DNA of 64,000 nt, taken from Perkinsus olseni. Taxonomy: Eukaryota; Perkinsozoa; Perkinsida; Perkinsidae. The notes under the pieces are model-generated. The model made no database searches. It saw nothing but the letters and a program-made list of their open reading frames with translations, and had not been told where the DNA came from. Shown in pieces: positions 1 through 36,486 of this stretch (its first letter is position 1; every line of letters begins with the position of its first letter). Made by a program: the position numbers and the translations under genes. The stretch spans positions 62,001 through 126,000 of the forward strand of contig JABANP010000118.1 in NCBI GenBank assembly GCA_013115135.1. The letters run 5' to 3'.

Positions 1-2095
1 TACATGGATCAACTCTTCTTCTCTGATGTTGCCATCCAGGCGGCCAGCGCTGGCAAGACCATGAACGCAGCAGGGCAGTACGACCTCATCGTCCAATACG
101 ATTCCTACATGCATGCAATGGAGGAGAAGGACCGATTGCAGAGCGAGAAGCGGAAAAAGGAAGTAGGCAGATGGGCGCTTCCGATCCTGCATCCATCGGG
201 CCCGATCGGATCAGTACAACCTTGATATTACTCTATGTTGTTTTCGCTGCTCTCTGGTGACACAGGGCACGCTATCCACATTCGGCCTAGACTCCTACGC
301 AGCCGAAGAACACGAACGATCGTTCCTCTACTCTCAGGAGTACAAGAAGGCCCTTGATAGTCAAATGATGGCGAAGCGTGCGGGCATGGCAAATGAGGCG
401 CAGAAGAGAGAGGAGGAGAGGCTTGCTATGGTAGCTAAGTGATTTAGTGGCGCGCGACCAAATTGTTTTCAGTTGGGCGCGAAAGAGGAATTGAAGCGAG
501 ACAGTGAAAGACGCGCCACGAGGATGAAACAGAAGAAACTGGCTATGATACAGGAGGCTGAGGAGGTGCAGCTTGCGGGCCTTCGATACCGTAACATGGG
601 AAAAGCAGGCTCAACGATCAATACAACGAAGGCAAAGAAGGGAAATGGCGGAGCGTGAAGCAGAACGACAGGAAAGTTTACAGAGAGTGAGTGGGGCTGC
701 TGGTCCGTGTAGACAAGCTCGAACATGTGAATGGCACCGCTGCGATTGCGATGGTATTTTGCTGTCGAAATTTGGGTGTCGTTCGCTGAGTGGCTACCCC
801 CGCTCTACTGAGCCCTCGCTAGAAGCCTTATCTCGGGGGGTCCTTGGGATCCTGGAACCAACCCGTCCGGAGACAGTCATAATTCCACCGCAAACAGATG
901 CAACGAGAGGCAGCGGAGGCGGCGATGGAGGAGAGGAAGAGGAAGGCGGCGAATGATAAAAGGCTGAACGACATCAATGAAAACATCAAAGGTGAACTCT
1001 GGCGCGCGCCACGAAATACCTGTGTTTGATAGATGCAATAGAGACGAAGCGAAGGGCTCGAGAAGAAGAGGCGGAGCTGGCGGAGATTCTAGCGAAGCAG
1101 CAGGCAGGACCCCAACCTCACTCTCCTCCTAGGGGCTCCCAGCTCGCCCTTCCGCAGATAGCGGCGGCAGAGGCGAACGAGAAAGCCAAAGCTGATGCGC
1201 TTGAACGATTGAGCAACCGGATCAAGCAGATTGCTCAGACTATCGGGAAGAGCGTCGGCGATGAGAACAAGGTAGGCCATGAGTTGTTATCTGTTGTTCG
1301 GCTTTTGAGCTTGGAGCTCCGCCATTTCCACCGCAAGTTTTATCGGTCAGAGACGGGAAGAGGAGGAAGATCGCCGATTACAGGCTCATTTGCACGCCGC
1401 TGAGCTCGCCTCTCGGAAGGTGGGTGGTTAGAATGTGGATTGGAAACTGTATTGTGCATTCTATCAGGCTGAGGCGGATAAACGCGCTCGCCAGGAGAAA
1501 GCAAAAAGAGATATGCTGGACATGCTCTCACAGCAGGTGGAGTCGTGAATTCGTCCGTGGTGCGCTATCCGTGCGCGACAGGTGCAAGAGAAAATGCAGC
1601 TGAGGAGATTCGAGGATACTGCGAACAAACGGCAGGTTAGAACATACCGCACTTCGCAGACATCATGGGCGCTCTCAAGGGAGAAGAATACCGCAAGATG
1701 GCACTCGCTGCGTTAGAAGATGAGGCGGAGGAACACCGTCAAAGGCGACGTAGGAGAGCCGATATGGACAAAGAACTCGTAGGCGCCCATCGAGATACGA
1801 GCTGCTAGCGGATAGCATTTGTCATCAGGAGAAGCAAATCTGCTTCACTAATTTGACAACAGAAGAAGACAGGATGGAGGTTGACCTGCAGCGACGGGAG
1901 CTCGAACTGAACCAGCCCCTCTTTCGGTGCTCCTGGGCGAATCTTCACTTGCCTCAGCAGCTATTGAGCCATCATCATCTTAGACGTCCAGTGTCGATAA
2001 TCTCACGTGCCGTTTTCAGGCGAATGGCTGCCCAGCGCTATAAAGAAAAGGAGTGTGCAAAGCTCCTCTTGTCGCAAAAAGTTGACTCGACATGA
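1..2095 (+). CDS. Long charged coiled-coil protein, likely flagellar/ciliary (5' end cut by window)
   Basis: Eleven exons join in frame with GT-AG introns: ...-162, 266-430, 473-565, about 609-686, 898-991, 1033-1271, 1351-1419, 1468-1536, 1582-1635, 1680-1778, 1829-1926 and 2020-2095 (TGA). Several introns are only 41-50 nt. The product is almost wholly helical and rich in Glu, Arg, Lys, Ala and Gln, with heptad-like runs such as EYKKALDSQM, EELKRDSERRA and RREEEDRRLQAHLHAAELA. This resembles trichohyalin-plectin-homology/MNS1- or CSPP1/CCDC66-type axoneme and centrosome proteins, but no diagnostic domain is visible, so the exact family is open. An ATG lies at position 4; whether it is the true start cannot be told because the window begins there. 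Two of its introns carry the GC-rich motif reported in the findings. The exon chain keeps one frame to the stop, so the gene looks intact. Confidence 0.75.
431..472 (+). repeat. Micro-intron carrying GTGGCGCGCG motif (copy 1)
   Basis: This 42-nt intron of the coiled-coil gene contains ATTTAGTGGCGCGCGACC between its GT donor and TTTTCAG acceptor. Related sequence is seen in the intron at 992-1032 (reverse orientation), upstream of the heme lyase at 30068-30095, and in the CK2 beta intron at 32822-32877. Confidence 0.6.
992..1032 (-). repeat. Micro-intron carrying the GC-rich motif in reverse (copy 2)
   Basis: This 41-nt intron contains GGCGCGCGCCACGAAAT, the reverse complement of ATTTCGTGGCGCGCGCC, so the core matches the other copies on the opposite strand. 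Its centre, GGCGCGCGCC, is self-complementary. Confidence 0.6.
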
Positions 2096-2472
2096 AAGTG
2101 ATGACCGTGGACTGTTAGATGTCGACAATTACTGCGAGAGGGTGTTGCGTTCCTAGTAGGACTACATCCGAAAGTACTCCGAACCCATCCGGCGCCGCAG
2201 ACTGGGCCTGTTTTACGAGTGTGCCATGCATTGCCATTGTTCAAGACGCAACAAGGACGAAATTTGACAACTCTCAACAGCATGAGTAGAGCTAGATCGA
2301 CACCGCCGATCGTCCTGCTTCAACTGTATAAGGAGAAAGACATCTTGATGAGCTCATTAGGAGGGGAATAACCCCCGGGAGCGATCGATAACTACGATCC
2401 CTCGTAGTCCAAGACGTCCACGACTCGTAGGCTAGGGATCGTCCCAAATGTCGAGTTACGAGGTGATGATTG

Positions 2473-3831
2473 TTATTTCGTTCTCTTAACAACTCTGTCC
2501 GACTCGGACTGATCTTGTGAACGCTTCTTCCCTCGGCTTATGCCAGCCTCGAACTCGCTGGGTTGGTGCGGAATGTCCGTCACTCCCGCGGAATCAACAG
2601 TAAGAGGGGTGTACTCAAGCCTGATCCTCAAGTCTGGCTTGTCCGGATCGGAGTCCTCCGTGCCGAGTAGCAGTTCGAAGTGGCCGCCATCCATGCCCGA
2701 TCTATGCAGTCTGATGGATCCAAGAGTGAGGTTGTTGATGCCGAATGCCCGGCCGGCTGCAGTGAGGGAGGCCTCGACTTCGGCCTGGTCCGCGGGGTCT
2801 GTAAGACCGGCGAAGATGTAGCAGTCAGCATCACAACCCTTCCTCACGAGCGGCATCAGAGGGAGGATGAGGACGTTGGACGGGGGAGTGTCCTCGGTGG
2901 CACTAGCGAAACGGAAGTATTTCGTAGGTGCACCGGTTGGACTCAATCCTGAAGAGGCCAAGCTCAACTCGACGAGTTGCCGACCTGTCCTCGTCCGTTT
3001 GGCAGGGTTAGACACACTAAATAGAATTTTCCTGTATCCTCCGCGTTCACCAAGGACCCGACTGGCAGCTCCCCAACGTCAGCGAGCGGGAAAAGGCTCG
3101 AAGGGTGCTCTTGGAGGTAGTTGAATCATTCCGAAGCCTGGGCCTCCAATCTTAGAAGGAGATGTCACCTCGGCGCTGCTAGTGGCAGTTGAGAGGACCG
3201 TAGCTCCCCCGCTAGTGATAGCTGTGTCTCCACGGCCTCTTGCTTGGGAGGTACCCGTCGGAGTCGCCTTGAAGTTTCGCTCCTCCACTTTCTCCAGCAA
3301 CAACGGACGTATGAAGGTGTACCGAGAGGCTCGAGCACGGCCACCGAGAAATACGTAAGCGTTCCCAGCTACGAAGCAGAGCTTGATTTGCCAAGAATTG
3401 CTCATCCTCACAGGACCAGGGATTGAGAGAATGTCGAAAATTCTGAGGAGTTCTCTCTTAGCCTGCTCACAAAGGTGAAGTGGTCTGTAACACTGATCGG
3501 TCCTTCTCACATCGGTGGGGCTAAGGACAACCTTCAGGTCGCCTGGGCTAGAGTACCGATCCCATTTGATGCTGTTGATGCGAATAACCTTCCATTCTCC
3601 ACTTGCCGTCTCACCAATGAACTCCATCTTGCTGAAGGGGACATCCCCCTGGGAGCCTCCCAAGCTCAGGTCCATGGCAATGCCCTGAAGGGTACCAATA
3701 GGATGGGCTGGATCAACCAGACCTTCATAGTGGCCAGCTTCGATGCTCGGAGGAGAGGCAGCCACCAGGTCTACGAAGGCGAGGAAGAGGAGGAGAGTGA
3801 CGGCAGAAGAACTGGGACGGGCGGTTGGCAT
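2473..3831 (-). pseudogene. Secreted-family copy A, frame-broken
   Basis: Starts at ATG 3831 with a signal peptide (MPTARPSSSAVTLLLFLAFV, cleavage near AAS^PP), followed by the family signature SIEAGHYEGLVDPAHPIGTL. The N-terminal frame ends at 3079. The C-terminal half (DTPPSNVLILPLMPLVRKGC to VVKRTK stop, 3015-2473) is in another frame. A 37-nt GT-AG intron at 3304-3268, at the same site as in copies B and C, changes frame in the right direction. Even so, a TGA near 3168 would need a further intron, and two extra bases near 2990 relative to copy C still break the reading frame (LTLP...), so this copy is probably inactive. The core around 2640-2890 is nearly identical to copy B. The C-terminus (GKKRSQDQ...VVKRTK) is basic. 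Function is unknown; I recognise no characterised domain. Confidence 0.7.
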
Positions 3832-3840
3832 TACGAATGG

Positions 3841-3956
3841 ACACCGGTATACTAGATGAAGCGGAAAATTAATACTAGATTAAGCGGCGTGAATAGGCCT
3901 TCCTAGATGAGTGGAAGGTTTCCGCTCGAAGTCTCTTTGCGTGCATCCTACAGGAA
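3841..3956 (-). promoter_or_regulatory. Conserved 5' blocks of secreted-family copy A
   Basis: Two blocks upstream of the ATG are shared with copy B. The proximal one (3841-3870) reads CATCTAGTATACCGGT on the minus strand and matches 36459-36475. The distal one (3919-3956) reads AGAGACTTCGAGCGGAAA and matches 36220-36257 and 53073-53109. They may be promoter or 5' untranslated leader. In copies B and C the distal block includes a GTAAGG/GTGAAG that could be a splice donor. Confidence 0.55.
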
Positions 3957-5566
3957 GGAAACCACCTCAGTCACAGCGCACGATTGTAGACGATTGTGCT
4001 GAGGCAGGCAATGGGAAGTCAACGAGGCAGCCCAGGGCGCATTTCGGTGATGGGTAGTAATGATGATAATACCGTGAGTGTCACTTCAACGCCGTCGCCG
4101 GCTTAGACTTGAGGCCGATTTGCTGGCAACTTGACGATGCCGTCTGGGTTGCGTTATTCAGCTAGTCCGAAGGCTGCAAGAACGTTATGACAATACAGCA
4201 GTACTCTCGTACAATTATACTGTACCCCCCGCTCTGATCGTTGAATGTTTGACCAGACACTGGAATGTGAATACTCTCTGGAGGTCATCTCACACTGCTG
4301 GCTCGGTCATGCTATGGCGTACCAGTAGGAAGCAACCGTCGTGGAGGCTGGCGGCGCCGACGCTCTCTGCTGTGAATGCACCCCCTTGATTGATAGGTCG
4401 CTGTCAGAGGTGTGGGTGTTTCCTGGAAGGAGACGATGAGCTATTGCTGAGCATCATCTCCACACGCGTAGTCAACTGCTTTTGCAGCCGAAACCGCGAC
4501 GCCGGAAGATGCAAGCTGGCAATGCTCAGCATTATCACATTCCAGTCTCTGCCTCCTAATGAAACCTTGAGGCGCTCATAGACAAAAATCAGATGCAGTA
4601 GCGTCCAGGATTGGTGGAGTGTCCGGCATAAAGTCCCTTTGGTCGGTACACCCTACTCAGCCCGTAGGTCTGAATCGTCCGAAGTTACCTGTGCTACACT
4701 GTGTAGCCTACACATCCTAGCTCATCTCACGCAGACTCAAGAAGCTCATGGATGAAGATTGGGTAATGGAAAGTTCTGCCGAGCCCATGGGACATTCAAA
4801 TCGATATTCCTGATGGCGGTCACGCAGCGGAGCTCTAAAAAAATCTCGCAATTATCCCTAGGAGGAGTCTACGATTGAGCAACGATCATTGCTACGACTA
4901 GTATGACCCACCAATTGACTTAAATGACAAGTGAGTTCACCATGGCGAACTGTGCACCTGAAGCACGTCGGGGATGAGGATGATTGGTTTGATTCGATTG
5001 GGGTCATCAACACTCATGGATGTTACTAAACTCCCGGTCTCAAGTGAAGCCTGATTGGCCCACCCCGCCATCCAATCCCAACATGAAGGCTGTCAACCCG
5101 GCGACTATTCTGAAGTAGCCGAGCAAGTTGGGAATGTAAAGCAGCACTTTTGAGAGGGGCGGAGGCATCTTCCTTTCGGAGAAGCGCTAGGATGCCTGGG
5201 GCGGCAAAAGGTGATCAACCAACAGAAGGCTATGTCCTGATGAATCAGCCGTTGATGCGGCAAGTGGGACAGAGTAGCTCCTCTCACAGCGGCACGGGGG
5301 CGACTTAGCACACATGAAGAAAGAGCAACGCAACAGCGAACCAAAAGCGATCTGCACAAGAACTGTGGAAATAAGAAGGTACTGCAGTTGAATGAAATGG
5401 AATCCCATCAGGATTTTTTATTGACGTCTCGTTGTAACGCAAGCTGGCAGAAGACTGAGAAACTGTGGTGGACTGGATAAGACGGATACTCGCGGTGGAG
5501 GGCGTCATGAGAATATTCTATTAGTAGTACTGAAACTGCTATCGCCTGATAATGCCTGAAAATACA
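3957..5566. other. Intergenic, no gene recognised
   Basis: Only short random open frames are present on either strand, none with a recognisable motif or a convincing exon chain. A 16-base string at 4672-4687 (GAATCGTCCGAAGTTA) also occurs at 34658 in the phosphatidyltransferase gene, which is too short to interpret. Confidence 0.5.
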
Positions 5567-5911
5567 TTATCCTCCTTGTAATGCCGGAGGAGGAGGAGTG
5601 AATTGAGGCTCCACAGGAGGCGGGGTCTCCAGAGGTACCCGAGCCCTCCTCAAGCCGACGAAGTCTGAGCTTGCACCTTCGGAATTCACGACAGCTTGCT
5701 CATCTGCGGCTGCTTCAGAAGGAGAGATTATTTGGGGGGTCGGCGGGAACTTGCCCGTTATGTCAGTTAGTCGACGATCATTAGAAATCCCAGCCAAGGC
5801 CGACTGAGGTTCGCGCGGACCTTCGATCATGGGAGGAGAGGCACCCACCAGAACCATGAGGGCAAGGAGGAGGAGAGTGACGGCTGAATAACTGCGAGGG
5901 ACGGTTGGCAT
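5567..5911 (-). CDS. Short secreted protein sharing the family signal peptide (copy D)
   Basis: The in-frame ATG at 5911 gives MPTVPRSYSAVTLLLLALMV followed by LVGASPPMIEG, clearly homologous in DNA and protein to the signal-peptide region of copies A-C. After about 30 residues the similarity stops. The mature part (about 85 aa) is Pro/Ser/Ala-rich and ends PPPVEPQFTPPPPALQGG with no Cys pattern. It lacks both the GHYEGLV block and the VLILPLMPL core. It could be a real small secreted protein made by signal-peptide reuse, or a truncated family relic. An upstream in-frame ATG exists at 5938 (MILYARVLT...), but the homologues argue for 5911. Confidence 0.55.
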   Translation of the reverse strand: MPTVPRSYSAVTLLLLALMVLVGASPPMIEGPREPQSALAGISNDRRLTDITGKFPPTPQIISPSEAAADEQAVVNSEGASSDFVGLRRARVPLETPPPVEPQFTPPPPALQGG

Positions 5912-5938
5912 TGTTAAAACCCTGGCATATAAGATCAT

Positions 5939-7638
5939 CAGCCTCGGAGTCCACCGCTACAGCAGAGGCTGCATGGCCCGAGGGGTAAGAGGTTCTCAGC
6001 CGCCACGCTTTCGACGGAGTTACCGACGTGTAATCGCTGCAACCTATCCGTCACAACTGGAGAGCTGCCGGCGGTAACTAGAGTCTGGAAGCTTCACGCC
6101 GCCAAGACCCCCTGGGGCCGTCATCAGAGCCCTAGAGAATCGGAGACTTCCCAGCTGTTCCGAACGGCCTGTTCATCCAGGAGGCCATGCGCACGCGTGC
6201 TGACCCAGCGTGTGCGTCACACTCTACGCGGCGTCGCTCCTCGAACGAACGACGCGGCTAGTTGTACCATCTGCTGCTCGTTGCACGAGGGGTCACTTCA
6301 ATCGATGTAGCGTCGTTGGTTGCTCTTCACCTCAAGCCAACGCAGTCGGTAAGGCGCGTTATCACATTTCCGAGGTCCCTAGTCAAGACTCTCTACACGT
6401 GCATCTAGCAGCAAGCCTCTTCAGTGACAGCGTGTAGAAAAGCTGATTATAAAGCCAAAAGTCGTTTCCTATCCTTCGTACAGCAGGATGGGCGCCCGCC
6501 TGCCATGATCGGAAGAGGTGCTTCCCTTTAGTCGGCCGGTAGCTGTTAGCCGCACTCTACAGCGTGGGGCCCGGGGAAATAACAGAGCTGTTCATCAGGC
6601 TTCCGGCATGAGCCTGTGGGAGTGCCTCGGTGTGATCCGGATGGGAACTCAACATGAGAGGGAAGAGGAGCTGCCGCGGCCGGCGGTAGACGACGACAGG
6701 CAGATTAGCTATATGATGCACGCGTACACAGTCGCGCGCTGACTCTACAGAGCCAAAGCGATCTATAGAGAGCATCGACGAGCTCGAAGCCGCTCAACAA
6801 TGTTGGGTCAACACTGTTGAGTCAACAGGTGCCTTGGGAGTGTACTTGAACACAACAGAGTTCAAGAGACTGTTCGCAATACACACAACGTTGTTGTTGA
6901 AATATCAAATGCTGTGGCCTGTGTTGATTCCAACCGAGCTGAGACTGGTGATAGGCTGAGGCTTTATGACCGACGCCTCCACGTCAGCCTTCCGCCTTTT
7001 GACCTGAGAACGTTCAACTGCTACTACGCACCGCCGAGAACTGGTTCCCTCACGAGATCCAGAGCCTCTCCACCGGCCGCCGCGACAAAGGGGAAGTTCC
7101 GTGAATCTGGACCATCTAGCATGGATGGCGGTAGTGGGAGGAGAAGCCGTAACTGAGAAATCTCGCCATCAGCCACAGTGGATAGTCAATCATTTACCCC
7201 CCATAGCCAAGGGGCTTCGGTCACCGATTATGGTACGCAAGTGATCCGAAAACATCAGACTACCGTGACCCCGAAGCGAGGAATCAGGATGAATCTTTCC
7301 CCACTCTCCGACTCTGAAGTCCCTAGAGTGGCAATAGCATATCCCCAACATTTTCCTTAGGCTCAAAATATGGTCTTGAACATGCGGGAATTTCGAAACC
7401 TGGTTTTTACAGCAAGAAGCGTCGCTTCGGGCAGCGCTAGGGCAGTGAGGAGACTAAGAACAGCAGCCAGCCCTGGTTGGTACCATAAAGTTGGTTCCGA
7501 ATATCTCCCTGATGTTGGTAGTCATCGATCCAGAGTCGTAAAATCGAGGCCCTATGGGGCACCAAGTTTTCGGGGCTATCTCCAGGAACCTGTGGGGCAG
7601 CACTCTGCAACTCAGCCGGTCTCTTTCCTGGAGACATA
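5939..7638. other. Intergenic, no gene recognised
   Basis: No exon chain or domain motif was found. Short complementary strings built on CAACA/TGTTG lie at 6795-6900 (for example CAACAATGTTG and GTCAACACTGTTGAGTC) and would fold locally. Confidence 0.45.
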
Positions 7639-9217
7639 TTACTCAGCTTTGTACGGCCGTTTCTCAATGAACGTAACGTTCCTCATGACTTGTCCGCATT
7701 GACCCCAGAACATGAAGGCCATTGCAATCAAAGCTCCGAACGTCGCGAACAACATCAGAGTCGCTCCGCCTGCACAGGACTGAAAAACAGCGGCAACATG
7801 CGCAGCGATCTCAATGTCTGATTCATAGTGGGTAGGATACACCTAGAGGCTACCGCGAGTGGACGCACGACCACTTCGACGAGCTTATTGCCACAAATGA
7901 GCAGCTTCAGCAGTTCGCATTGATTCCCTCGTTGCTCTGCAACTCGCATAGATGACAAGTTTGGTATGATGGATGAGAGGAGCCAATTCTACCGTACTAA
8001 TCACCAAGAATATTCCGGTTTTTCGCTACTTGAACGCGCAGTTCGAAATACAATAACGACTCTCACGCCAAGCGGAAGCACTGATAAAACCAGGGCGTTC
8101 ATCCAGCAGCAACTGCCGAATTCACGAGGAGTTTCCTCCACATCCGGTGACAGTGCGATAACGGTCGGTCGGATCTCCGTTCATTGGAGTGCTGCTTTGA
8201 CGCCAAGCCATTGGCACAACGATACGAGGCGGCTACTTACAGGAATGATAGTCCTCAAGTGTACATAGAGGCCGATGGGGAGAGCAATGTGACCATAGGT
8301 GATGTACTGCCATGTGCTGAGTCTTACACCGAGGAACAGGGGACCGAACCCTTCCCGTAGGAGAACAGTTGACCAAATCATGTACCTTGAGAGACAGGGG
8401 CATAGCTTGTGCAATGAGTGAGCTATACTGTGAGCTTGGTTGAATAAGGTTCAACCTCACTTCGAACATAGGGATGATGAACGCCGCAACACGGAAGAGC
8501 ACTCAAGTTCCAGCGCTTTCGTATACGCGCAGTGAGCGTCCCTGGAGGAATGGTAATCACCATGATGAGACTTACTGAGCATAGATGCAAGCCGCGGAGC
8601 CGAAGATGAACACCAGAATGAATGATCCTTGATTTCGAGCACCCACGCAGTTCCCTGAGAGCAATAGCCCACGAAAATCTCCTATCCATTTGAAGCGCGT
8701 CGACGTCCTTCCAACTTTTCCAAGTCCATCCAGATGCAAGGGCATCCTGGGGGCATTTTTATACCCTGGAGGGTCACACGACTGCCTACTCTAATGTGTA
8801 TCCATTGTGAATATGCTGGTTTAATACCCATTGCAAATCGGCCGTTGCGAACAGGACAGGATGAAGGCCGTTCGTTAATACCAAGCCCCCGCTCGTCATT
8901 GCGGACGAATCCCCAACCTCTCAGTGATATCCTACATCGCTATCTATACCTCGATATCGATGCGCGAAACGCTCGCTTTCACTAGCAGAGGCCGTTTCTA
9001 GGATTGCGGTCGCATTGGCGGCGCTTAGCTTCCCCTAGGCGGTGGCAGGCTTACCGGTAACATCACAATGATGATCCATTCGGTCGACACACCTATTGCA
9101 CCTCGAGCAATGGTGGGAACGTGGAGGTTTGTAACTGGGGCAAGGCTCAATGTCGCGTGTACCGCTGCCGCAACGGAATACAGCCGAAGTTTGCCGAAAT
9201 AGAGCGCGGTGTGCCAT
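7639..9217 (-). CDS. DHHC-type protein S-acyltransferase (palmitoyltransferase)
   Basis: The Cys-rich domain exon (about 9055-9217) encodes [19 protein letters not shown] followed by VDRMDHHC; the catalytic DHHC lies at 9065-9076. A GTAAGC donor at 9054 splices to 8654, and the next exon (8576-8654) continues in frame as [20 protein letters not shown], the expected continuation after DHHC. Further membrane segments appear at about 8500-8460 ([12 protein letters not shown]) and 8330-8255 ([16 protein letters not shown]). The last exon (7842-7639) ends in a hydrophobic stretch and [16 protein letters not shown], matching the TTxE motif region of the family. This integral membrane enzyme moves palmitate from acyl-CoA to protein cysteines at Golgi or plasma membranes. 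Odd point: the usual DHHCPWVNNCVG reads [13 protein letters not shown]-terminal membrane exons upstream of 9217 are not resolved. Confidence 0.85.
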
Positions 9218-9271
9218 GATCTACGTGTGTGGTCGATCTCAAGTTGAGATCGACCACACACGTAGATCATG
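9215..9271. repeat. Perfect 28-bp inverted repeat (hairpin)
   Basis: Bases 9215-9242 (CATGATCTACGTGTGTGGTC...) are exactly complementary to 9244-9271, with a single G at 9243 as spacer. It lies immediately 5' (on the minus strand) of the DHHC exon, probably inside an intron or leader. Confidence 0.95.
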
Positions 9272-10007
9272 CCGGCTCCCGTGAGATTCTCAACGGTCCC
9301 ACCAGCGGGCCTACTTTTTGCACCACTCGCAATATCGCGGTGCGTATAAAAAGTCTGTGACCTCAGTCGCGTGGGATGTCGGGTGTTTTCTAACACGCAG
9401 TTGGTATCTAATAATATCGTTGTTCAAAAGCATTAGTTGAATTCCTACTGTCCAGTAGCTTCCATGTCGGGCTTCCGGTCACCGTGTATGTACCCCGGGT
9501 CAGACATCATCGCATGATAGAAGTTCACTACGAGCTGAAGGGGCATGATGATGATCAGAATGAAGCCAGAGGCGAGTTAACCCACCTGGAGGCTAAGCCA
9601 CACGGCAAAGCAGCCATGTAGCAGGCTCAATACGGGACCGGCGTTCCGAGCAATGAGGATGTTCTGATGAAAAGATGGTATGTGATCAGGCGTGACTTCG
9701 TTACCGGCAAGAGCCAGGCAATGCCGAGAGACGGGACTATGGAGACAAGGCAGAGTGTGGAGAGTCTGCCGAGCTTTGTTAATATAGCGATGGGGTTCAT
9801 TGACACTGATGAACTGAACAGGCTTGATCTTTTGTCATCCGCCGTAGCAGGCTAACGTCATGGATTGTCGAGATCCCGGGTTCTATCCCGGCCGACTGCG
9901 TTTCTCCATTTATTTATCTCCCGAAGCGCTGTTAGACTTGAGTCCGAACAAATATACTGTTGTAAATACGATATGACTCGCGCTTAGGCTCATCCTCAAG
10001 GCGTAGA

Positions 10008-23062: not shown

Positions 23063-26000
23063 ATGGCACAGTGGAGTGAGCGGCTGTTGATGAAGCTCGG
23101 CGTCGCTCTTTCATGCCTGCTTTGGGGCATACAGGCTGAAGCAGGAGGTCGCACTTTGGACGCCGATTTCCCTCGATTCGTGGTAGTACGTGACGCAACG
23201 AGAAGAACAAGCTTGAAAGGGCTCGATCCTAGAAAGCGGGGCAACTCTGCCGGCGATGCTAACTGAACTAAATACAAGCTTCGAATTTCATTTTTTATTG
23301 GCACCGTTGAGTCGCTCATCAGAAAACATCTCGTGGGAGCGTTCGACTCACTGTGAGGTTCTCCGATTAGTGACACTGATTGAGCAGGAGAGCATTCGCT
23401 TCTCCATGCGGGCTATCGCTATCTCGCACCGTGTTAGTTTATCGCCCGGGACGATCAACTTGGTAGCCTGGGTTTTTCAGGAATATCTTCGTGACCGGTG
23501 CGGCATGGAGAAGGTCGCCGATCCTGAGATTGATACTGCCATTCTCGACCGTCTGTCGACGGAAGCAGATACCACAGGTAGAGGGAATCTCTCCATATAG
23601 GGTAGTTTTGCGAGAAGGGTGGTAACCGCATGGGCGCCCCACCAGTAATGTATAGCACTTCCAATGTCGATTGATGCAGTGGCCAAGTGTCTCTGTGGGT
23701 ATCGGTTTGAAGGTTGAGAATAGCTTGGCCAAGGCCCGGATCGATTGGCTCCGGTTTTGTATCAGGTAGAGATGATAGACCGTGGCTGCTGTGGTATACG
23801 ACTGATGGTAAGATCACGCACCCCGGTAGGGAGCTCATCATCAGTGAGTAAGTCTTTTGAGTAAATGCTCGACCGCGGTGATAATCAGGTGGCTAACGCA
23901 ACGTTCTTCCCATACTGGGAAAGGTTGGGTTGGGGTATGCTGTACGGTGGTTTCGACACCCCTCAAGAGCCACAGGAGCGCCACCACAAGACTGTCGAGG
24001 TTGTGGCATTGTAGACTAGGGAGCATGAAACAGTACTAAAATACCGCCCACCTGGACAGTTTGATGTACGGTACTACAAGTACCGCTCTGTCCCGTTAGC
24101 GATACGCTATGGGTAGCGAATCCGGGTGGGGGCCAAAAGAGGCGTCCCCCTCACTCCCACACTGGGCTTCGAACTTTGTAGTCTACAGGTAGCCTGATCT
24201 AGTAACTGCTTGACTTTCCCTTGTACATGTCTAAGCAACAAATCTCAACAAGTCGCTGGCTCCCTTCTGTGGAAAGGGTGCTCCTCAACGTCTTGGGTGC
24301 CACCCAATGGGTGGCGTCAGACTTCCCTGCTGAAGAGAACGATTTCGGAGCTGCCTGCTGGCTGCTCTGTGGACCACAGACTGTGGTGACGTCGTCTTTC
24401 ACAGCCGGCCTTCTGGACTCTTCTCCTCGTCCAACCAGTTAACATATACCGACCTCCTGTCCTGCGCCTCCACTGGCGACGTGGAGTCTCCACAGTGGAA
24501 CTCTTTTTGACAACGTTTGCTATCTCGTATGATACTAGCAGGCCCTACTCCTCCCGGAGAAGGTCTCCTTCAGCGTCTGCACGGTCAATGGCCTCAGCAT
24601 CTATGACATAGATTCTATGTCCTCTTCGTATCCCTGGTCATCTGGTGGCCGATCTTGGTGAAGGCCTGAAGCTCTCTACTTTCTTGAACAGAGCTCGGCA
24701 CGACTTCCTCCCAGCTGGAGACGTATCAAGAACATCACGACCTCAGACTCTCAGACCTTGGGCGCCCCTAGCACGGCCCTCATGGCTGCCACATCACTAA
24801 CCACCCGCCTCTCCCTCGGTGGCTTCATCGACCCTGCCTCCGGTATATGCTTCATGGGGTATCTCATTGATCTCGGGTTCGGCCGAGACGGTACAGCCCG
24901 CTGCAGGAATGCTCTAGAGTGCCTTCTAGTCGAACTCCATGCTGCAGTCACCGACGGCCGCATTCCGGACTGCTCCTTACTCCTGCCGGAGGGAAGGGAA
25001 AAGACTATAACTACTATTCGACTATATCACCTCCACTGAAAGATATCCTCGAGAAGTTCGACGTCAGCAAATGTGTGCCAAGTTGTCTCGCTCTCTAGTC
25101 TTGAAGGTCTGACGTTGCGGCAGTGACTCCGCGAACAACTCTGATGACTTCATAGGTATCGAGAAGATACTATCTCCTCTTTACCACTAAAAGGCGAATA
25201 TTGAGCAAACTGCAGTCTGTCGCGAGATTCAATCCATCCTGTTACTCCTCGATACGCTGCCTGAGCTGTTTTATATATTTGTCGATAGCGGTGCGGTGAA
25301 CCCGCATTGGATTCGTAAATTGTTGTATTCAAGTGTACAGAGTGGAAAACCACACTCAGTTTGGAATTTCCTAGGCGAAGGCCCTCGAGAGTTACGGACT
25401 CTCTACGAGACACGATGAAAACACATTCCGGGTCTTTCCAGATCCTTTGACAAAGGATAAGAGCTATCTATGTGTCGTTGGATCACGTTTCGGAAATTGA
25501 TGTTGCTGCCGTCGGGTCAACTAAGTTCACTGAACTACTTCAACTAAGTTGAAGTATTGACCCAGTGGAGTTGAGCGGATCCTAAGTAGTTTCTTGTTGT
25601 ATAGGTACGCTATGGGATATTTAGAGGGGTTGGCAACGGCAGAATATCTATGGCTGTTCTATCATCTTAATACAGAGAGGATCGTCGGTCCCCCTGGAGA
25701 ACGGACTCCCGGTGGTACTTGGATGAAGGACTCGTAAGTCCGTCGAAAAAACCTCAGCCGAACTCGTAGTCGGCTCTGCTCGCCCGAGGGAGGAAACCTC
25801 GGTGCACTCTATTGACGAGGCGGGCGTGTCAGCAGGTACTTTGCTCCCATTCTAACCAACTTCATGGAGGGCAACCATAATCATCAAGAGTGCCGACTGG
25901 AGCCCGACTACCTCCAACTCGCTCACGGCTATTACTGTCAACTCCTCGGTCTCCTCGATGGTTATAACAGAGCTGTAGGGACCAATTCCAGAGCTAAGGT

Positions 26001-27700
26001 GAGGCTTAACCCCGATACAAGTATAGACCTAGTCGTTGGAAATAGAAAAGCTCGGGAATTTGTACAGTGACAGCCGTTAGACAGGCCTCATCGACTGCAG
26101 TGGCCCACTGCCAGTGGGGTCGACGGGTCGATCTTTCTCAGTACACGCCCTCGACCTCCAAGAGTATCCTCGCCTTCCTCGACATTCTTGCCATCAATGC
26201 AGATGGTCAACTACCTGAGCTCCAACAGATCGGTACGGCTGCCTTCCTTGTTCACGCGTCCCTCTGCCGCCTCAGGTCTCGATCATCAGTCGCTCGGGGA
26301 GATTCGACCACATAAACATGACGAGAGGGAAGTATTGAATTCATTGGAGAAAGCATCGGTCCCTCAACGCTGCAGTGCCCTCGTGAAACTCGTACGCAAC
26401 AGCGCAGGCTCGGTGACAGATGTCATCTCCGCCCAGTAAGATGCTCATCGCCGTTCACTGACTGCTCCCTGGAGGTCGTATATAATGCAATTTCTTGGTA
26501 TAGATGCTATATTCATAACTTGGTGTGATACCATGCGTTGAGTGTGTCGTTCAAGGGGGAGTGCCCGTCCTTATCTGGCCTACTCGGCTGTATCCTCAGC
26601 ACCACTTGGGAGAGCTTCCCTGAGATGGTCCGCATAATGAAGGAGATCTCAGCTCCGATGGTCAAGCAGGACAGGACGGATGCTACTTTGCAGTTCTCCA
26701 GCTACCCGGGCTGCATCAGCAGTAGGGCCTCCCGTGAGGCCCGACCGGACACTTGTCGTTGCGCAGGTACGGACGACTGGGTTATACGGCCATCGATGTG
26801 GCTGGTGTCGTTCGAAACCACTACTAACATCATCCAGCCTGGGCAGTTTGGAACACCGGAGTTCACGCCAGATTTCATCAGAATAATGATCGTCGTGTCG
26901 TTGTCTCATGACACTGAGTCGTGGAAGAATATCATGGAGACGTGCGACCTTCCCAGTGGAACGTACAACTCCCAGTGGATTGTAGTCGACTACCAGAAGG
27001 TGAAGCAGGCTGCTGATGAGAAGTCGGCCAATCTCCTGGACGGCTCGGTTATGGTGCTGGAAACTGCTCCCGGAGCTGTGGAGAACGAGTATGGCGTGTT
27101 CGAGTCCCGAGATATGTCAAAACACGTCAGTGAGAATGGTCACTTGCTGGCTTCAACGAGGCTATGTTCCCGACCATCCGACGGCATCTCGGTTCTGACA
27201 GCGCCCCCTACCCTCAGGACGGACGCTATGCTGTCTTCCAGCAGCTCGCACCGATGGTACATGACATCGCCACTATGTACTCGGTGATGCAGTTCAACGA
27301 GCCGGGGAATCGCGGAAGCATTGCGCCTTTGAATGCCGATGATGGTGGTGCGGATTTGAAGATCACCAACTTGGCGACGATGAAGGAGAAGGGGGGCTCC
27401 TGGGCGTACAGCGGCCCACCGCGCGTACAGGGGTATTCAGCGGACGGTAGAGCGAGGAGGAATGAGTATGTCGAAAAGAAAATGAGCGACTTCTTCGAGT
27501 CACCCAAGGCCAGGCTGAGCTGGGAGTTCCCGTTGGTCCTTTTCGTTGCACAAGATCAGCGCATGTGTATGTCTAAACGATGCCAGCCTGACTTCATGAC
27601 AGATCCGAGAGACTTGAAGACGATAGCTAAAAACAGTCCTACGTCGTCCATCAGTATGGATGCGGCTGATTGCGCATATTTGTGCGTTGAAAGAGAATGA
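23063..27700 (+). CDS. Phospholipase B-like (PLBD/lamina-ancestor family) secreted Ntn-type hydrolase
   Basis: ATG at 23063 or, giving a classic signal peptide, 23090 (MKLGVALSCLLWGIQAEAGG). Family blocks follow in order: VANATFFPYWERLGWGMLYG (23891-23950), YAMGYLEGLATAEYLWLFYH (25605-25733), LQLAHGYYCQLLGLLDGYNR (25915), ILAFLDILAINADGQLPEL (26168), RCSALVKLVRN (26368; the Cys at 26371-26373 is the predicted nucleophile by family analogy), TWESFPEMVRIMKEISAP (26605), FSSYPGCIS (26695), WLVSFETTTNIIQPG (26800), LPSGTYNSQWIVVDYQKVKQ (26950), VMVLETAPGAV (27052) and DLKITNLATMKEKGGSWAYS (27357). It is likely delivered to lysosome-like compartments or secreted. The 24.01-25.60 kb interval acts as one very large intron. 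Exact C-terminus uncertain; the open frame stops at 27700. Confidence 0.88.
24221..25039 (+). other. Open frames inside the large PLB-like intron, unrecognised
   Basis: Two plus-strand frames, 24221-24442 (STSRWLPSVERVLLNVLGAT) and 24758-25039 (LSLGGFIDPASGICFMGYLI, then DLGFGRDGTARC), look more protein-like than neighbouring intron DNA. They have no counterpart in the phospholipase B-like family. They could be inserted gene or element fragments, or lineage-specific exons. Confidence 0.35.
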
Positions 27701-28629
27701 ATTATGCACAGTAACATGGTCTAGGCTGTCAGTACTCTGCATTAGCGTGTTGTGTTACGTAGTCGGAGGGTACGAGCATTCCACGGAGACCCACCACGAT
27801 ACAGCGATGTCACTCGGACATACCGAAGACTATGGAATGCACTCCGTTCTCGCGCCTAAGAAATTCTCCACGCAAATGCCGACTTCAGGGAAGAGTACTC
27901 CACGTTTCCGGCGTAACCTCTTGTTCATAACGGGGAGATCTGAATCGTGCGAAGGGCGGAGCTCTTGGAAGTTCCACTATGAGGGAAGGTCACGCCACCG
28001 GCCGAGGATACTATTCTCAGAATAGCGAGTTCGAAGTTCCCACAGAACCATTAGCGTATAGACACTTTAATCAACTCAATTCGACAGCTGCTCAGTTGTC
28101 GGTGAAATTACCATTCTGCATTTCTGTGATGACACTGCAGGAGCGGCAGCTACTGCTGCTGCTGCCAGCAGTCATAACATGGGTACGTGTATGATAACGT
28201 CAGTGATGATCAGAAGCATAAGTCGTTAGCATATTAGTGAATTCGCACAACAGTGGCGGCGGACAGTATACAGTATACAGCCGAGTAGTAACGACAAACA
28301 ATTAATATCTCCATCATGCGGAGAAGTAGGGGATGACGAAACCGATGAACCAACGCCGAGCTAGAGCTGCTGCTGGTGCTGACCGTAGCGGCTGCTGGCA
28401 GCATCGCCGAGAGTACTGCTGGTGGTGGTGGTGCAGCTTTGCGGTTGGATACACAAATCCAGATCATTGTCGTATCTGACAACTTGTGGAAGGCATCCTT
28501 GAATGAGATATTGTTCCTGAGAACAGAACAGCCGAGTAGTTAACTGACCGTCCCTTTAAACTCATGTCTCAACAGGATACGACGGCCGTGAACAACGAAG
28601 CAACGCGGGGAAACAGTGGCAGTTCATCA
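27701..28629. other. Spacer between convergent genes
   Basis: The end of the PLB-like gene and the 3' end of the HAD gene converge here. A CAG/CTG-rich patch (GCTGCTGCTGCC near 28152) and a GCTGCTGGTGCTG patch near 28367 are the only structure seen. Confidence 0.45.
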
Positions 28630-29745
28630 CACCCTGAAAATCATCGCTAATACGCTTGCAGTTATCAATAGATCAGACGGTCGGGCACCAATCAGGTCAC
28701 AAATGCATCGGACGGAATCGGGTAAAAAGAAGAGCTCACGCGAAGGGGTTACTTTTTTGAGATGTTCCAAGTCGGGCTTTTCCATGAACTTCAGACTCTT
28801 ACAGAGAAGGTAACTACTCTTATCACATCCTTGAACTGCTGCCAGCTCATTGAGGACATGGCAAGCGTTGATGACGGCCAAACGTTCGTGAGCCGAATCG
28901 CCCAGAGACACCACACAGCGGCGACGGCTGAGAACGGGAGTACAGGAGGGGATATGAAGTCGCTTACCCTGCAACTGGAGGGCTCGAGAAATGCTCAGAG
29001 ATTGCTTGCTTGAAGGACTGATCCTTCCACTCGAACGCTGATGCGAATCCCTGGAAAGACGTTTTTGAGTAATATAGCGGAGACCTGACCTGAGGCTCGT
29101 ATGCAGTCCTGGCTGAGATGTGGTGTATGTTGCTGAGGGTAGGCAGGAGGGAGGGGAGGAACTTAGCACAAGTGAGGGGGATCCAGCCGGCCTCAGCGTT
29201 AGTCACTATAATCACCGTGCCTGCCAGTAACAGAGAGCTGTCAATAGACTTCCGAATCCAGAACGATACGGCAGCAGACAGTTCCGAATGAGTTTACAGA
29301 GCAAACGATTCGGGTCGTCCCGAACTCTCTCAAATTTGATGAGAAGACAGATCCTACCGAATTCCATGGCCGTTAGTAGAGTATCTTTAACAAGCATAGC
29401 GTAGTCATCCAGTGCAGACATTAGTCCCGTCGGCGGGCTAGGACCGTCCACTCGGAGACCCTGAGTGAATATCAGCACTACTGAGGCTACTGCTGCAGCG
29501 GTGGCGATACCCATTGCACAGTGAGGTAACGGGTGGGAAGGATAGTATCGTCCCAGTCGAATATAATGAGGGTATCTTCTTTATTAATGTAGTGACCACT
29601 GATGACATCTGATGAATCCTCAGAGGAGGAGTCACTGCTAGAGGTGGTGGAAGCCCCAGCAACAGTAGAATCGAAGGAATTGCTACGCCGGGCAGTGAAC
29701 CTGGCGGCCAAAAGGCGTGTGAGGGATGAGAGGAAGATGCTTTAC
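28630..29745 (-). CDS. HAD-superfamily protein (putative phosphatase of protist type)
   Basis: Exon 1 (to 29520) carries a Ser/Asp-rich leader (STTSSSDSSSEDSSDVISG) then LIIFDWDDTILPTRYLT with HAD motif I DWDDT (29558-29544). Next exon (about 29350-29450): SALDDYAMLVKDTLLTAMEF. Then 29215-29090: TVIIVTNAEAGWIPLTCAKF (motif II TNA), ISARTAYEP. Then EWKDQSFKQAISEHF, and 28930-28830: VVSLGDSAHERLAVINACHV (acidic motif IV), followed by SLKFMEKPDLEHLK with the motif III-like Lys. The order and blocks match a HAD family widespread in alveolates, oomycetes and algae whose substrate is unknown. The nucleophile Asp pair is present, so catalysis is plausible. The true start codon is not resolved: a TAA lies just upstream of exon 1, so a short 5' exon is likely. 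Confidence 0.8.
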
Positions 29746-30062
29746 ATGCTGGTCGGGGCGTGATGCCCTCGGACACTGTGAGCCTCCTCATCGGAGGGCT
29801 CTTTACCACCACGACCACCACCAACAACATGCTGTTCATAGGGGACAGCTGTATCAGTGAGAGTATCGCCAGCTGTCATTATTAAATGATTACCACTAGT
29901 AGTAGGAATATCCAGACCCCTATCATCGTAAACAACGTGCAGTACTCATCTCAGTGAAGCGGTGAGCCCCTTCTTAATGACAGTAGTGCTAGCCTTGTCC
30001 GGTAACAGGAAACACTCGGCTGCTTACATAAATGCGACGCTCACCGCTCGTAACATGCGCTG

Positions 30063-30095
30063 AGAAGTAGCTAATTTCGTGGCGCGTGACGTAAT
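30063..30095 (+). repeat. GC-rich motif upstream of heme lyase (copy 3)
   Basis: GTAGCTAATTTCGTGGCGCG then TGACGTAATT lies about 70-100 nt before the heme lyase ATG. It resembles the whole start of the 431-472 intron (GTAGCTAAGTGATTTAGTGG), so it may be a 5' UTR intron or a shared promoter element. Confidence 0.5.
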
Positions 30096-30163
30096 TCACT
30101 CTTCATCGCTCATCGTCATCGCCATGCCGTCCAGGCTGATGCTAGTGGTTTTGACTGATAAAT

Positions 30164-31417
30164 ATGTCGTCCTGCCCCCTCGGCTACGGCGGTGAATCCA
30201 GCACCGCGGACACCACCCCTTCAGGCGGTCAAGGTGTGCAGAAGGAAAGTAATTCCTCGGGCAGTGAAAATTGAACTGTTCAACGCTGAGGAGTGGCGCC
30301 GCCGTGGTTGACTTGACGTGTCGAAGGGACGCTGGGAGCCCTATCGGACCTCGGCAGAGCTCAGAGCTGTCGAGCACCTGTGAGCGCTTTAGTCTATCAA
30401 GACCGATCCACGGAACTCGTGCCATGGCATTTGGAAGGCAGCATTCTTGGCTTATTCGTCTTGCTGTGAAATTACCGAAATTATTGAAGTTTTTTTCGAA
30501 AAAGTCATCGTTTCTTTATTTCTAACACCATCAAGTTGATCATTCGAAGTCGTGTGAGCGCTCCTCTCGTGGATGACGCTTTCGAGGTTCCTGATGGCAA
30601 TAGGTCGGAGCTGTCCAAGGAGCGAACGACGTCGAGTATACCGGGAGTAGATGGAGAGAAGTTCAAGTATCCGAGTGAGGATCAGTTCTATAAGACTGTT
30701 AAGCGGTGAGCATTCATAGTGGATAGCGGATCGTTAGTACTGCTACAGGAAAGGGCATGCTGTGGAGGCTGATGACATGCGGACTGTTGTGGCCATACAT
30801 AATGCTGTCAATGAGAGTAAAGCAGATTCGGTTCGTGCTCAACGAGTGCGGGGAGCGTTAATGAAGGCTTGTTTGCATGGGGGGGTGTGGGCCTCAGGAG
30901 CATGGCATCAGATCAAAGAAGTGGAGGACCGTCTGCATGGTCGTGTATGCGCCAAAGAAGCCTTACGACTCGTCAAATTTGTCGGGAGGCCAGGTAGTAT
31001 CCTGAGAGACTAGCAGCCTTACGGGGCTCCTTGGGTGTAAATGGGGATGAGTCGATCGCTTGGGTCGAACCCACGACCTCGGGGGCGAAGGACAGTACAC
31101 TTACCCAGGTGAGGTATCGCCCAAGTCGCGTATCATGCGGTTACTCGGAGGATGGACTGAGCCATTCGACCGTCATGATTGGTACATTGATCGCTGCGGC
31201 ACTACCGTGAGGTGAGCGTCTCTCTCTGCGGCATCTCCCGCGGATGATGACAACGACTAGGTATGTGGTTGATTTTTATGATGGAAGGCCCCCCGAAGGG
31301 ACGGCTCACTTGCCGCTTTCCCTACAGCCAGTATCAATCTTCGTTGATGCCCGACCGGCCGTATCCACCCTGAGTGACCTGTGGGATAGACTCCGGCTCT
31401 GGGGCGGATTTGCTTGA
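30164..31417 (+). CDS. Cytochrome c heme lyase (holocytochrome c synthase)
   Basis: ATG 30164 gives [20 protein letters not shown], with a Cys-Pro heme-regulatory-like motif. The middle exon, ending 30705, reads [14 protein letters not shown] and [16 protein letters not shown]. It splices (30706-30748) to [20 protein letters not shown], ending NE at 30816. Intron 30817-30897 leads to [15 protein letters not shown] and FVGRPG (to 30993), intron 30994-31108 to [20 protein letters not shown] and [14 protein letters not shown] (to 31211), and intron 31212-31260 to [11 protein letters not shown] and [20 protein letters not shown], stop 31415-31417. All joins keep frame. These are the diagnostic blocks of System III heme lyase, which attaches heme covalently to cytochrome c in the mitochondrial intermembrane space. 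The exon between the N-terminal segment and about 30545 is not exactly placed. Confidence 0.93.
30994..31108 (-). repeat. Heme-lyase intron containing tRNA-like sequence in antisense
   Basis: The minus strand reads GGTCGTGGGTTCGACCC, a T-arm/B-box-like hairpin, preceded by GGTAAGTGTACTGTCC that resembles the D-arm side. Anticodon and acceptor stems do not pair, so it is a tRNA-derived fragment rather than a working tRNA gene. Splice sites sit at the ends of this 115-nt segment. Confidence 0.5.
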
Positions 31418-32195
31418 TGTGTGTCATGAGTTTCTGAGTCGATACGTCTTTTGTGTTCAAGGGCTGGCCAATTCGGAAATATCTTTGGGTCTTCATCATA
31501 AGCATCGGAATTATGCTTTTCCTCAGTACACTTCGGCATCCCTTGTGGTTGCTACTTTCGCTGGTCTCCCCGTCCCTTGGAGCCTTTGTCAAGTGGCCTT
31601 GGGATCCCTCCACTGCTGTTGGTACTACCACTCCTTCAACTATTCGTCTGAGAGCATCTCGTTGCTACAATCCGTGTCACTTCTTCCCCCGTGTCAAACC
31701 CGAACAAGCGTAGACGCACAGTGAAGGCAGCCACAACCGCAACCACCACTAAAGAAGACCAGAGCAACAAGGAACCTACAAATCTGAGACCTACTACACG
31801 AGACAGGTAGTAACGGCGGTAACAGGAATAGGGAGATGATGATGAATGACGGTCCGAGGTTCGATCCCCAGGCCTTGCGTTCCTTCTGTTGCGTGTATAC
31901 GATTCTCTCGGTACTGTGGATCGGGGGATTCTTTTGTTCTTCACAGTGCACCGGTGGCGATGCTGCATGGCCAATCATTAGCGAATACGCCGCCAAGTGG
32001 GTGTCATCGTCAACCGGGCTTTTCGGAGGACAGTGGTAGTATTTCTCATCGATCTGCACGATCACCGCCACTGTACGGTCGTGTCCACGCACGACCACCT
32101 CAACAGGAGCATTGTGCTTCTTCGTCCGAAAATTCCAGTCGGAGCGATCTGGCGTGGTGCACTTTGGCACTTTCTCGTCTCCTCCACCCTCTCAG

Positions 32196-33270
32196 ATGAT
32201 GATTCTTGCTCCTACGACTGCGGCTGGATTGCGTGGTACTGCAGCTTGAAGGTAGTCCATCCCCACGATGACTGATCCCAGGTGTCCTCCTGTCGTAGGG
32301 CCATGAGATGTTCGCAGAGGTCGACGAGGACTACATTCGAGATGCTTTCAATCTCTACGGCCTCCGCGCCAAAGTCCAGGTCAGCAGCAGCAGGAGCTCC
32401 CTTGTCTTCGGGCTAGTACTGTGTGTTCTCGCCAGTTCTATGATCATGCATTGGAGATGATACTCAGCGACGAGCGGCCAGATGAAGAGGACTTGGCGGA
32501 CAACGTGAGTTCACGATTGAAAACAAAGGCGGGGTTTTTGTTGTAGTTGACGATCATCGTCTTAGGATTTTCTGGAGATTTACCGGGAGGCTGTTGACCT
32601 GTACGGTCTCATACATGCACGATATTGTCTAACTCCGAGGGGATTGTCCGTAGTGAAGGAGAAGTACCTACGAGGTAGGGCAGGCGGAGCGATGCAGCCG
32701 CTGATGAGTCTGAGAGCCTTCATCAGGGGACTACGGGACTTGTCCGCGAGTCTATTGCAACGGCCAGCATGTGCTGCCAACAGGAAGGGTGGGAGAGGAG
32801 CTCAGGGTTGAGCCAGTGAAAGTAATGCAATTTCGTGGCGCGCGGTAGTCCTCCTCCTCAATGCCGTGCTGCTTCAGTTGTACTGTCCCAAATGCGAGCA
32901 ACTGTACGTCCCTCGGCAGAAGCATGCTCACCTTGATGGTGCCTACTTCGGTGCGTCCCTTCCTAGCTTGTTCTTCCAGGTGAGCTCGACACTTATCATC
33001 ACTCCCGCGCAAGAATGCGTCCGTTATTGTTTCTCGCCTGCCCTAGGAGTAGGGGTCATGCTTTCCTCCTATGAGTTTTCGCCGCTCTTCTTAACCTTGG
33101 TGTGTTCTACTCAGACCTTCCCTAAGTTGATACCAGCGGAAGTTCCTGTGTATTTCGAACCTCGTGTATTCGGGTTCAAGGTCCACAACAGACCGTACGT
33201 GATGCGCCATCATCATAAGTCCACCGACGTAGTGGAAAGGATGCCGTTCTTTTCAGATCTGTCGTGCTAA
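32196..33270 (+). CDS. CK2B: Casein kinase 2 regulatory beta subunit
   Basis: Exons join in frame: 32196-32251 (DCGWIAWYCSLK), 32299-32379 (GHEMFAEVDEDYIRDAFNLY), 32436-32504 (FYDHALEMILSDERPDEEDL), 32566-32674 (EIYREAVDLYGLIHARYCLT), 32727-32821 (GTCPRVYCNGQHVLPTGRVG), 32878-32979 (LYCPKCEQLYVPRQKHAHLD, GAYFGASLPSLFFQ) and 33115-33270 (TFPKLIPAEVPVYFEPRVFG), stop at 33268-33270. The Zn-binding CPR..C and CPKC pairs that dimerise the subunit are intact, as is the acidic EVDEDYI region. It stabilises and directs CK2 kinase. The first exon, upstream of 32196, is not found; the exon begins in phase, so the initiating ATG must lie upstream of the TCTCAG acceptor. The intron at 32822-32877 holds the recurring GC-rich motif. 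Confidence 0.95.
32822..32877 (+). repeat. CK2 beta intron with GC-rich motif (copy 4)
   Basis: The 56-nt intron contains AATTTCGTGGCGCGCGG shortly after its GTAATG donor. Confidence 0.6.
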
Positions 33271-36480: not shown

Positions 36481-36486
36481 TTCGCA

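What the first reader, a model, noticed from the sequence alone, without database searches (positions are those of the whole stretch)
431..32877. Short GC-rich motif repeated inside small introns: candidate introner-like element
A core close to ATTTCGTGGCGCGCG appears in two separate 41-42 nt introns of the coiled-coil gene (431-472; 992-1032 in reverse), in a 56-nt intron of the CK2 beta gene (32822-32877), and about 70-100 nt upstream of the heme lyase ATG (30063-30095). The copies at 431 and 30063 also share GTAGCTAA at the start, which in the first is the splice donor itself. Four matches of 14-17 bases clustered in introns is far above chance. Either a family of tiny introns spreads by insertion (introners are documented in some dinoflagellate relatives), or an intronic/promoter protein-binding site with a TTTCGxGGCGCG core exists.
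Basis: partly seen in the sequence, partly recalled or inferred. Interest (0 to 1): 0.75.

Follow-up and report, generated by a model that had tools for sequence, protein, structure and literature searches.

The report
Dispersed 23-base motif in Perkinsus introns
A short, almost invariant DNA word occurs many hundreds of times in the genome of this single-celled shellfish parasite, mostly outside coding DNA and often inside very small introns; it looks more like a protein landing site than a jumping intron, but what it does is not shown.

Summary
The genome is a Perkinsus (61.5 Mb). ATTTCGTGGCGCGCG with at most 1 mismatch occurs 1635 times against 2 for the reversed pattern. Three window copies lie in small introns, one proven by protein alignment across the junction, two by gene model. 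Copies share only about 25 bp, [AG][TG]AATTTCGTGGCGCG[CT]G[AG]NAAWTT, with imperfect dyad symmetry. With the motif masked, gene models put 58 of 135 copies in introns (43%, control 17%), 56 between genes (41%, control 43%) and 21 in exons (16%, control 40%). Genome-wide donor counts agree (64 sense, 35 antisense, 12 control). Introner tests fail: no shared intron ends, no fixed distance to splice sites, no target duplications, many copies outside introns. Best reading: a long, orientation-tolerant DNA-binding site tolerated in noncoding DNA, introns favoured. An RNA-level intronic signal and a decayed micro-mobile element remain open; evidence for constraint is only suggestive. Two other short word families are also intron-rich. 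Literature searches, seen mostly as listings, did not turn up the motif.

The parts
431..472 (+). 42-nt GT-AG intron of the coiled-coil gene holding a motif copy in sense
   Evidence: Called by the gene model; unspliced reading meets an in-frame TGA (sequence)
442..456 (+). motif core, 1 mismatch
992..1032 (+). 41-nt GT-AG intron of the coiled-coil gene holding a motif copy in antisense
   Evidence: Called by the gene model; a length of 41 shifts the frame if unspliced
1003..1017 (-). motif core, exact
30074..30088 (+). motif core, GCGCGTGAC subtype, 1 mismatch, 76-90 nt before the likely heme lyase ATG at 30164
   Evidence: downstream exons match PF01265; the ATG was read by eye; splicing or UTR status here not testable
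32822..32877 (+). 56-nt GT-AG phase-0 intron of the CK2-beta gene holding a motif copy in sense
   Evidence: Junction EPVK|LYCPKC aligned to CK2-beta structures and PF01214
32830..32844 (+). motif core, exact

Best explanation
The motif is the recognition site, about 23-25 bp and with imperfect dyad symmetry (AATTTCGTG half, GC-rich centre, weaker AAATT half), of an abundant sequence-specific DNA-binding protein (transcriptional, architectural or replication factor) of Perkinsus. Sites are kept out of coding DNA and lie in introns and gene-flanking DNA, often several per kilobase, so that introns serve as docking DNA inside genes. Shown: copy number, logo, symmetry, clustering, depletion in exons, enrichment in introns. 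Inferred: that a protein binds, and what it does.
For: 1635 copies against 2 in the control. Information confined to -3..+22 with random flanks. Right flank complementary to the AATTT arm (at least 4 pairs in 38% of 126 distinct copies, 14+-3% after shuffling), in introns of both orientations and between genes. In 35 copies with 1-2 mismatches, 37 of 50 mismatches fall on A0, A1, C5, G6 and G13, none on G9, C10, G11. Both orientations occur. Clustered: 19 neighbour gaps under 1 kb, random mean 2.9. Exons depleted, introns enriched with the motif masked. All 9 copies (up to 2 mismatches) kept in 3 near-duplicate locus pairs.
Against: No binding protein, no expression data. Copies in introns are more often sense than antisense (43:22; 64:35), which a pure DNA site does not predict. 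Introns are favoured over intergenic DNA, which needs a further reason. Copies with one mismatch to the 12-mer are nearly as many as exact ones (2813-1497 = 1316, control 153), which decay would also give. Evidence for constraint is weak: in the 6 of 9 near-duplicate sites not picked by the search, core 3/96 against flanks 48/481, p=0.03, and p=0.33 without one site. No promoter preference was established.
Confidence: 0.48

Rival explanations
1. An RNA-level intronic signal: the motif in the pre-mRNA is bound by an RNA-binding or splicing factor and helps tiny introns to be recognised.
For: Sense bias 43:22 in predicted introns and 64:35 by genome-wide donor counts. A second word family, GTATCTTAGGTTGA, is more strongly sense-biased in introns (39:9, tandem copies included). 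GCGCGTGAC-subtype copies in introns of my loci were mostly sense (15:1 with the motif masked, 17:3 without; the other subtype 17:24 and 30:25).
Against: Antisense donor counts are still about 3 times the control (35 against 12). 56 of 135 copies are labelled intergenic. No fixed distance to either splice site. The sense RNA is hardly more stable with the true right flank than with a shuffled one (-4.90 against -4.67 on average, not tested further). The subtype bias was not borne out genome-wide: 11 of the 31 strings printed (antisense donor) have the GCGCGTG subtype, near-duplicates included.
Confidence: 0.2
2. A micro-mobile or introner-derived element: a very short sequence that was copied into many places, sometimes creating or enlarging introns, and has decayed to a 25-bp core.
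For: Very high copy number with sharp borders; many single-mismatch copies; local tandem copies spaced 19 and 38-39 bp; other short dispersed families in the same genome; introners are documented in Amoebophrya and other dinoflagellates (PMC7789003 and PMC11453091, passages).
Against: No similarity beyond about 25 bp in the logo, nor as BLAST matches of 80 bp or more around copies in non-duplicate loci; no fixed intron ends; junction repeats as in other introns (5 or more bp in 2/48 against 13/529); mismatches not spread evenly; 9 of 9 copies shared between near-duplicates, 3 of them picked for it.
Confidence: 0.22
3. A chance or composition effect, or an assembly or adapter artefact.
For: Only that the window alone holds few copies.
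Against: 1635 against 2 for the reversed pattern; different flanks at the copies; copies inside introns of conserved genes.
Confidence: 0.01

Closest known systems
Introners / introner-like elements (Amoebophrya, other dinoflagellates; PMC7789003, PMC9860276, PMC11453091, passages)
   Same: A repeated sequence in many small introns of an alveolate related to dinoflagellates.
   Different: Only about 25 bp shared, variable place and orientation in the intron, also between genes, no target duplications; PMC9860276 calls introner families from BLAST similarity of introns plus flanks (methods passage).
Long binding sites of abundant DNA-binding factors (CTCF, yeast general regulatory factors, E2F/SBF sites; recalled, from no call)
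   Same: High-information, clustered, orientation-tolerant, noncoding; words like TTTCCCGC and CACGAAA occur within it.
   Different: No match to a named site was tested; spacing differs from an E2F site as recalled; strong presence inside 40-80-nt introns seems unusual.
Short GC-rich palindromic clusters of fungal mitochondria (recalled, from no call)
   Same: Short, GC-centred, imperfectly palindromic, in introns and between genes.
   Different: Here among nuclear-type genes with spliceosomal introns, and no evidence of movement.

Membership tests
Introner | Copies share sequence over most of the intron, including both splice ends | tested here: not met
   Logo information only at -3..+22; no BLAST matches of 80 bp or more (E<=1e-8) around motif copies except in near-duplicate loci; core-to-splice-site distances 3-46 (5-prime) and 4-75 (3-prime) in 49 introns
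Introner | Found in introns, not generally elsewhere | tested here: not met
   56 of 135 copies labelled intergenic, 58 intron, 21 exon with the motif masked; gene models are imperfect
Introner | Target-site duplication at the intron ends | tested here: not met
   Mean in-register run 2.35 in both motif (n=48) and other introns (n=529) up to 120 nt
Introner | Recent gain: presence/absence between alleles, paralogues or species | tested here: inconclusive
   9 of 9 copies shared in three near-duplicate pairs, 3 of the 9 picked because both members matched; for two window genes no second place was found; no other species' DNA was available
Sequence-specific DNA-binding site | Bounded motif with position-specific tolerance | tested here: met
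   Logo; uneven mismatches in 35 copies
Sequence-specific DNA-binding site | Works in either orientation | tested here: inconclusive
   847/788 on the two strands; both orientations in introns but with sense bias; function itself not tested
Sequence-specific DNA-binding site | A protein that binds it | not testable with these tools
   No binding or accessibility data available
RNA intronic splicing element | Strand-specific, in transcribed introns only | tested here: not met
   Antisense donor counts above control; intergenic copies; no RNA data
RNA intronic splicing element | Selected RNA hairpin | tested here: inconclusive
   Mean sense folding energy -4.90 against -4.67 with shuffled right flank; antisense -2.46 against -2.50; no significance test

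The most novel reading that the evidence does not exclude
Perkinsus noncoding DNA carries a whole class of nano-elements: several unrelated families of 12-25 bp (this one, GTATCTTAGGTTGA, GCGGAGCGAAGC), some with hundreds to thousands of near-identical copies, placed preferentially in tiny introns with family-specific strand bias and local tandem growth. They would act as an intron-borne code, or spread by a copying process that leaves only the core, unlike introners or known mobile elements.
Probability: 0.2. Interest if true: 0.82.

Novelty: new variant of a known kind. Interest (0 to 1): 0.55.

Why it matters
As far as I know, cis-elements of perkinsids are hardly described, and a 12-bp word with 1497 exact copies in 61.5 Mb gives an immediate handle on them. 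If sites inside 40-80-nt introns are functional, introns in compact protist genomes would be docking DNA for regulators rather than passive spacers, which could be tested with sequence data. If the families instead spread by copying, they would be smaller than any introner that I know of.

Tried and rejected
The first version of the gene model had a minus-strand codon offset. Counts in this report use the corrected model (on). The window introns at 431 and 992 were printed, plus strand, and their genes reappear in the corrected models. The logo split used old labels and is not used.

A 5-prime bias of motif introns was suspected from gene listings; not supported (p=0.24 against other introns of the same genes). 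An excess of divergent over convergent intergenic intervals near motifs (21:1, p about 1e-5) turned out to be largely a model artefact: the window cut into 3-kb pieces also gives 58:26. The remaining p=0.012 rests on overlapping pieces, so it is not claimed; intervals that hold a motif give 14:1 or 18:1, p=0.32 and 0.22 against base counts.

The sense-only behaviour of the GCGCGTGAC subtype was not confirmed by the strings. Same-orientation preference of neighbours (34:11 under 600 bp) includes tandem and near-duplicate copies; on the list it is 11:7 at 60-1000 bp, so it is not claimed. The first near-duplicate conservation test (p=0.005) suffers from sites picked because both members matched; restated. 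RNA hairpin: no clear energy support. Transposon ends: the convergent pairs listed have no common length.
Full report
WHAT WAS CLAIMED AND WHAT IS THERE. The window lies at G000:C22:62001-126000 of a 61,483,535-bp, 968-contig genome. The five homologues found for a window protein are Perkinsus olseni hypothetical proteins at 43-56% identity, so the organism is a Perkinsus; the species was not settled. Passages of PMC3101222 say that introns in the P. marinus genes examined run from 39 to 1622 bp, the majority under 100 bp, so 41-56 nt introns are ordinary here.

THE INTRONS. Removing 32822-32877 gives an unbroken alignment to CK2-beta structures through EPVK|LYCPKC and one Pfam CK_II_beta match over 142 of 142 residues. 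The two coiled-coil introns were found without homology by a gene model trained here; no Pfam family matches that gene. Outside the window, 10 of the 48 other gene models with motif-bearing introns (one search lists 50, window included) were scanned with Pfam (8, 2). In 6 of the 10 a Pfam match runs across the motif position: a Rab GDI, a protein kinase, a Na/H exchanger (two introns), an MA3 protein (intron 3 residues inside the match), a ubiquitin hydrolase (model uncertain there) and a WD40 protein (the spanning match is below its family's cut-off, the general WD40 match above). In 4 it does not (another kinase, an ankyrin protein, Sec62, SURF1).

COPY NUMBER. ATTTCGTGGCGCGCG with up to 1 mismatch: 847 + 788 = 1635 places, reversed control 2. 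TTTCGTGGCGCG exact: 1497, control 6; up to 1 mismatch: 2813, control 159. AATTTCGTGGCGCGTGAC up to 1 mismatch: 830, control 0. AATTTCGTGGCGCGCGGGAAATT up to 3 mismatches: 294, control 0. Near-duplicate contigs exist, so the number of independent sites is smaller.

ANATOMY. In 107 copies from the first 63 loci, information is confined to about -3..+22: [AG][TG]AATTTCGTGGCGCG[CT]G[AG]NAAWTT. The right flank is complementary to the AATTT arm: at least 4 consecutive Watson-Crick pairs in 38% of 126 distinct copies against 14+-3% with shuffled right flank, and likewise in sense introns (34 against 10%), antisense introns (48 against 23%) and intergenic copies (43 against 14%). Among 35 copies with 1-2 mismatches to the 14-mer AATTTCGTGGCGCG (reversed control 0), 37 of 50 mismatches fall on A0, A1, C5, G6 and G13, and none on G9, C10, G11. 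That is the pattern of a recognised site rather than of even decay, though the sample is small and comes mostly from loci around intact copies.

WHERE THE COPIES LIE. I trained a gene-model HMM on 64 merged stretches (278 kb: the window and loci around copies). With the motif masked so that it could not influence the call, 135 copies (up to 2 mismatches) fell 58 intron, 56 intergenic, 21 exon; 1727 random masked positions in the same stretches (five rounds, so not all independent) fell 17% intron, 43% intergenic, 40% exon. Intron enrichment p=2e-11, exon depletion p=6e-9, intron against intergenic odds ratio 2.65, p=2e-6, with control counts rebuilt from the rounded fractions. The 135 include near-duplicates and neighbouring copies. 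Without masking: 77 intron, 48 intergenic, 10 exon. The model misses some introns (the CK2-beta one), so labels are noisy. An independent whole-genome check counts donor words within 30 nt of the exact 12-mer: GTRAGT upstream, sense intron, 64; ACTYAC downstream, antisense intron, 35; ACTYAC upstream, pointing away, 12. Sense and antisense both exceed this control (p=1e-9, p=0.001), and sense exceeds antisense (p=0.005). Near-duplicates are included, and no separate downstream control was run.

TESTS OF THE INTRONER IDEA. Motif introns have junction repeats like other predicted introns and a similar median length (60 against 55), with a longer upper quartile (130 against 85). Phases 0/1/2 are 23/26/20 in motif introns and 267/177/192 in the others. 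The core sits 3-46 nt from the donor and 4-75 nt from the acceptor in 49 single-copy introns up to 120 nt. BLAST among all loci (E<=1e-8, 80 bp or more listed) shows shared sequence around copies only in three near-duplicate pairs; the other matches are tandem repeats or lie away from the motif. In these pairs (93-96% identical) all 9 copies with up to 2 mismatches are shared; one 3-mismatch match is in one member only. Three of the 9 were in effect chosen because both members matched. In the other 6 the core has 3/96 changes against 48/481 in the flanks (p=0.03; p=0.33 without one site). So there is no sign of recent movement, and only suggestive evidence of constraint.

CLUSTERING. In 16 contigs of known length (95 of the 100 places listed; 2.98 Mb) 19 neighbour gaps are under 1 kb; random placement gives 2.9 on average and at most 10 in 2000 trials. 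Local tandem copies occur with spacings 19 and 38-39 bp.

NOT ALONE. Word counts in the same stretches, with the motif masked, bring up other families. GTATCTTAGGTTGA has 758 exact copies in the genome, control 0; 48 of 90 near-copies in my stretches are in predicted introns, sense 39 against antisense 9, tandem copies included. GCGGAGCGAAGC has 25 of 56 near-copies in introns. These labels are unmasked; introns make up 19% of the stretches. Words such as GGTTCGATCC resemble a tRNA T-arm (recalled) and are probably tRNA genes or tRNA-derived repeats.

MECHANISM. I take a DNA-binding site as most likely (0.48): bounded, dyad, clustered, in both orientations, kept out of coding DNA. The sense bias and the preference for introns over intergenic DNA leave room for an RNA-level signal (0.2). 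A micro-mobile origin (0.22) is not excluded: single-mismatch copies are many, but none of the introner hallmarks that gave a clear result was met. Binding, expression and presence in other species could not be tested.

LITERATURE. Introner with Perkinsus: one held paper, on Amoebophrya (passages). PMC9860276 (passages) has no occurrence of 'perkins' in its main text. PMC11453091 (passages). The motif as a string: one paper each for two forms, both on animal subjects by title (listings only). Searches on Perkinsus introns, promoters, genomes and repeats were seen as listings, apart from the passages; no title or opening of an abstract listed there describes such a motif. Most subscription papers are not held.

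Noticed in passing
window 14656 (+), 14246 (-), 57520 (-), up to 2 mismatches; genome-wide: Second dispersed word family GTATCTTAGGTTGA: 758 exact copies, control 0; intron-rich and sense-biased in my stretches, with tandem arrays, e.g. 38-bp spacing in G000:C21:122158-122741 and 40-bp in C26:68513-68806.
   Followed up: partly
window 19928 (+), 21771 (-), 32684 (-), up to 1 mismatch: Third word family GCGGAGCGAAGC / GCTTCGCTCCGC, 56 near-copies in 33 stretches, 25 of them in predicted introns.
   Followed up: partly
window 2473-3879 (-), 36346-37678 (+), 52991-54586 (+): Three diverged copies of a gene family sharing SPPSIEAGHYEGLVD; the five homologues found are from P. olseni.
   Followed up: partly
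window 61018-64000 (-): Open frames resembling a MULE-type transposase (recalled) next to a frame with a tandem NLNGNHHHQPAPAAAP repeat at about 62412-63309.
   Followed up: no
window 50769-50842 and 55162-55235 (-), 40494-40566 (+): Three tRNA genes; the two on the minus strand lie in a repeated 112-bp stretch about 90% identical.
   Followed up: no
L037/L051, L045/L049, L038/L061: Near-duplicate contig pairs at 93-96% identity, probably haplotypes or recent paralogues, so genome-wide copy counts are inflated.
   Followed up: partly
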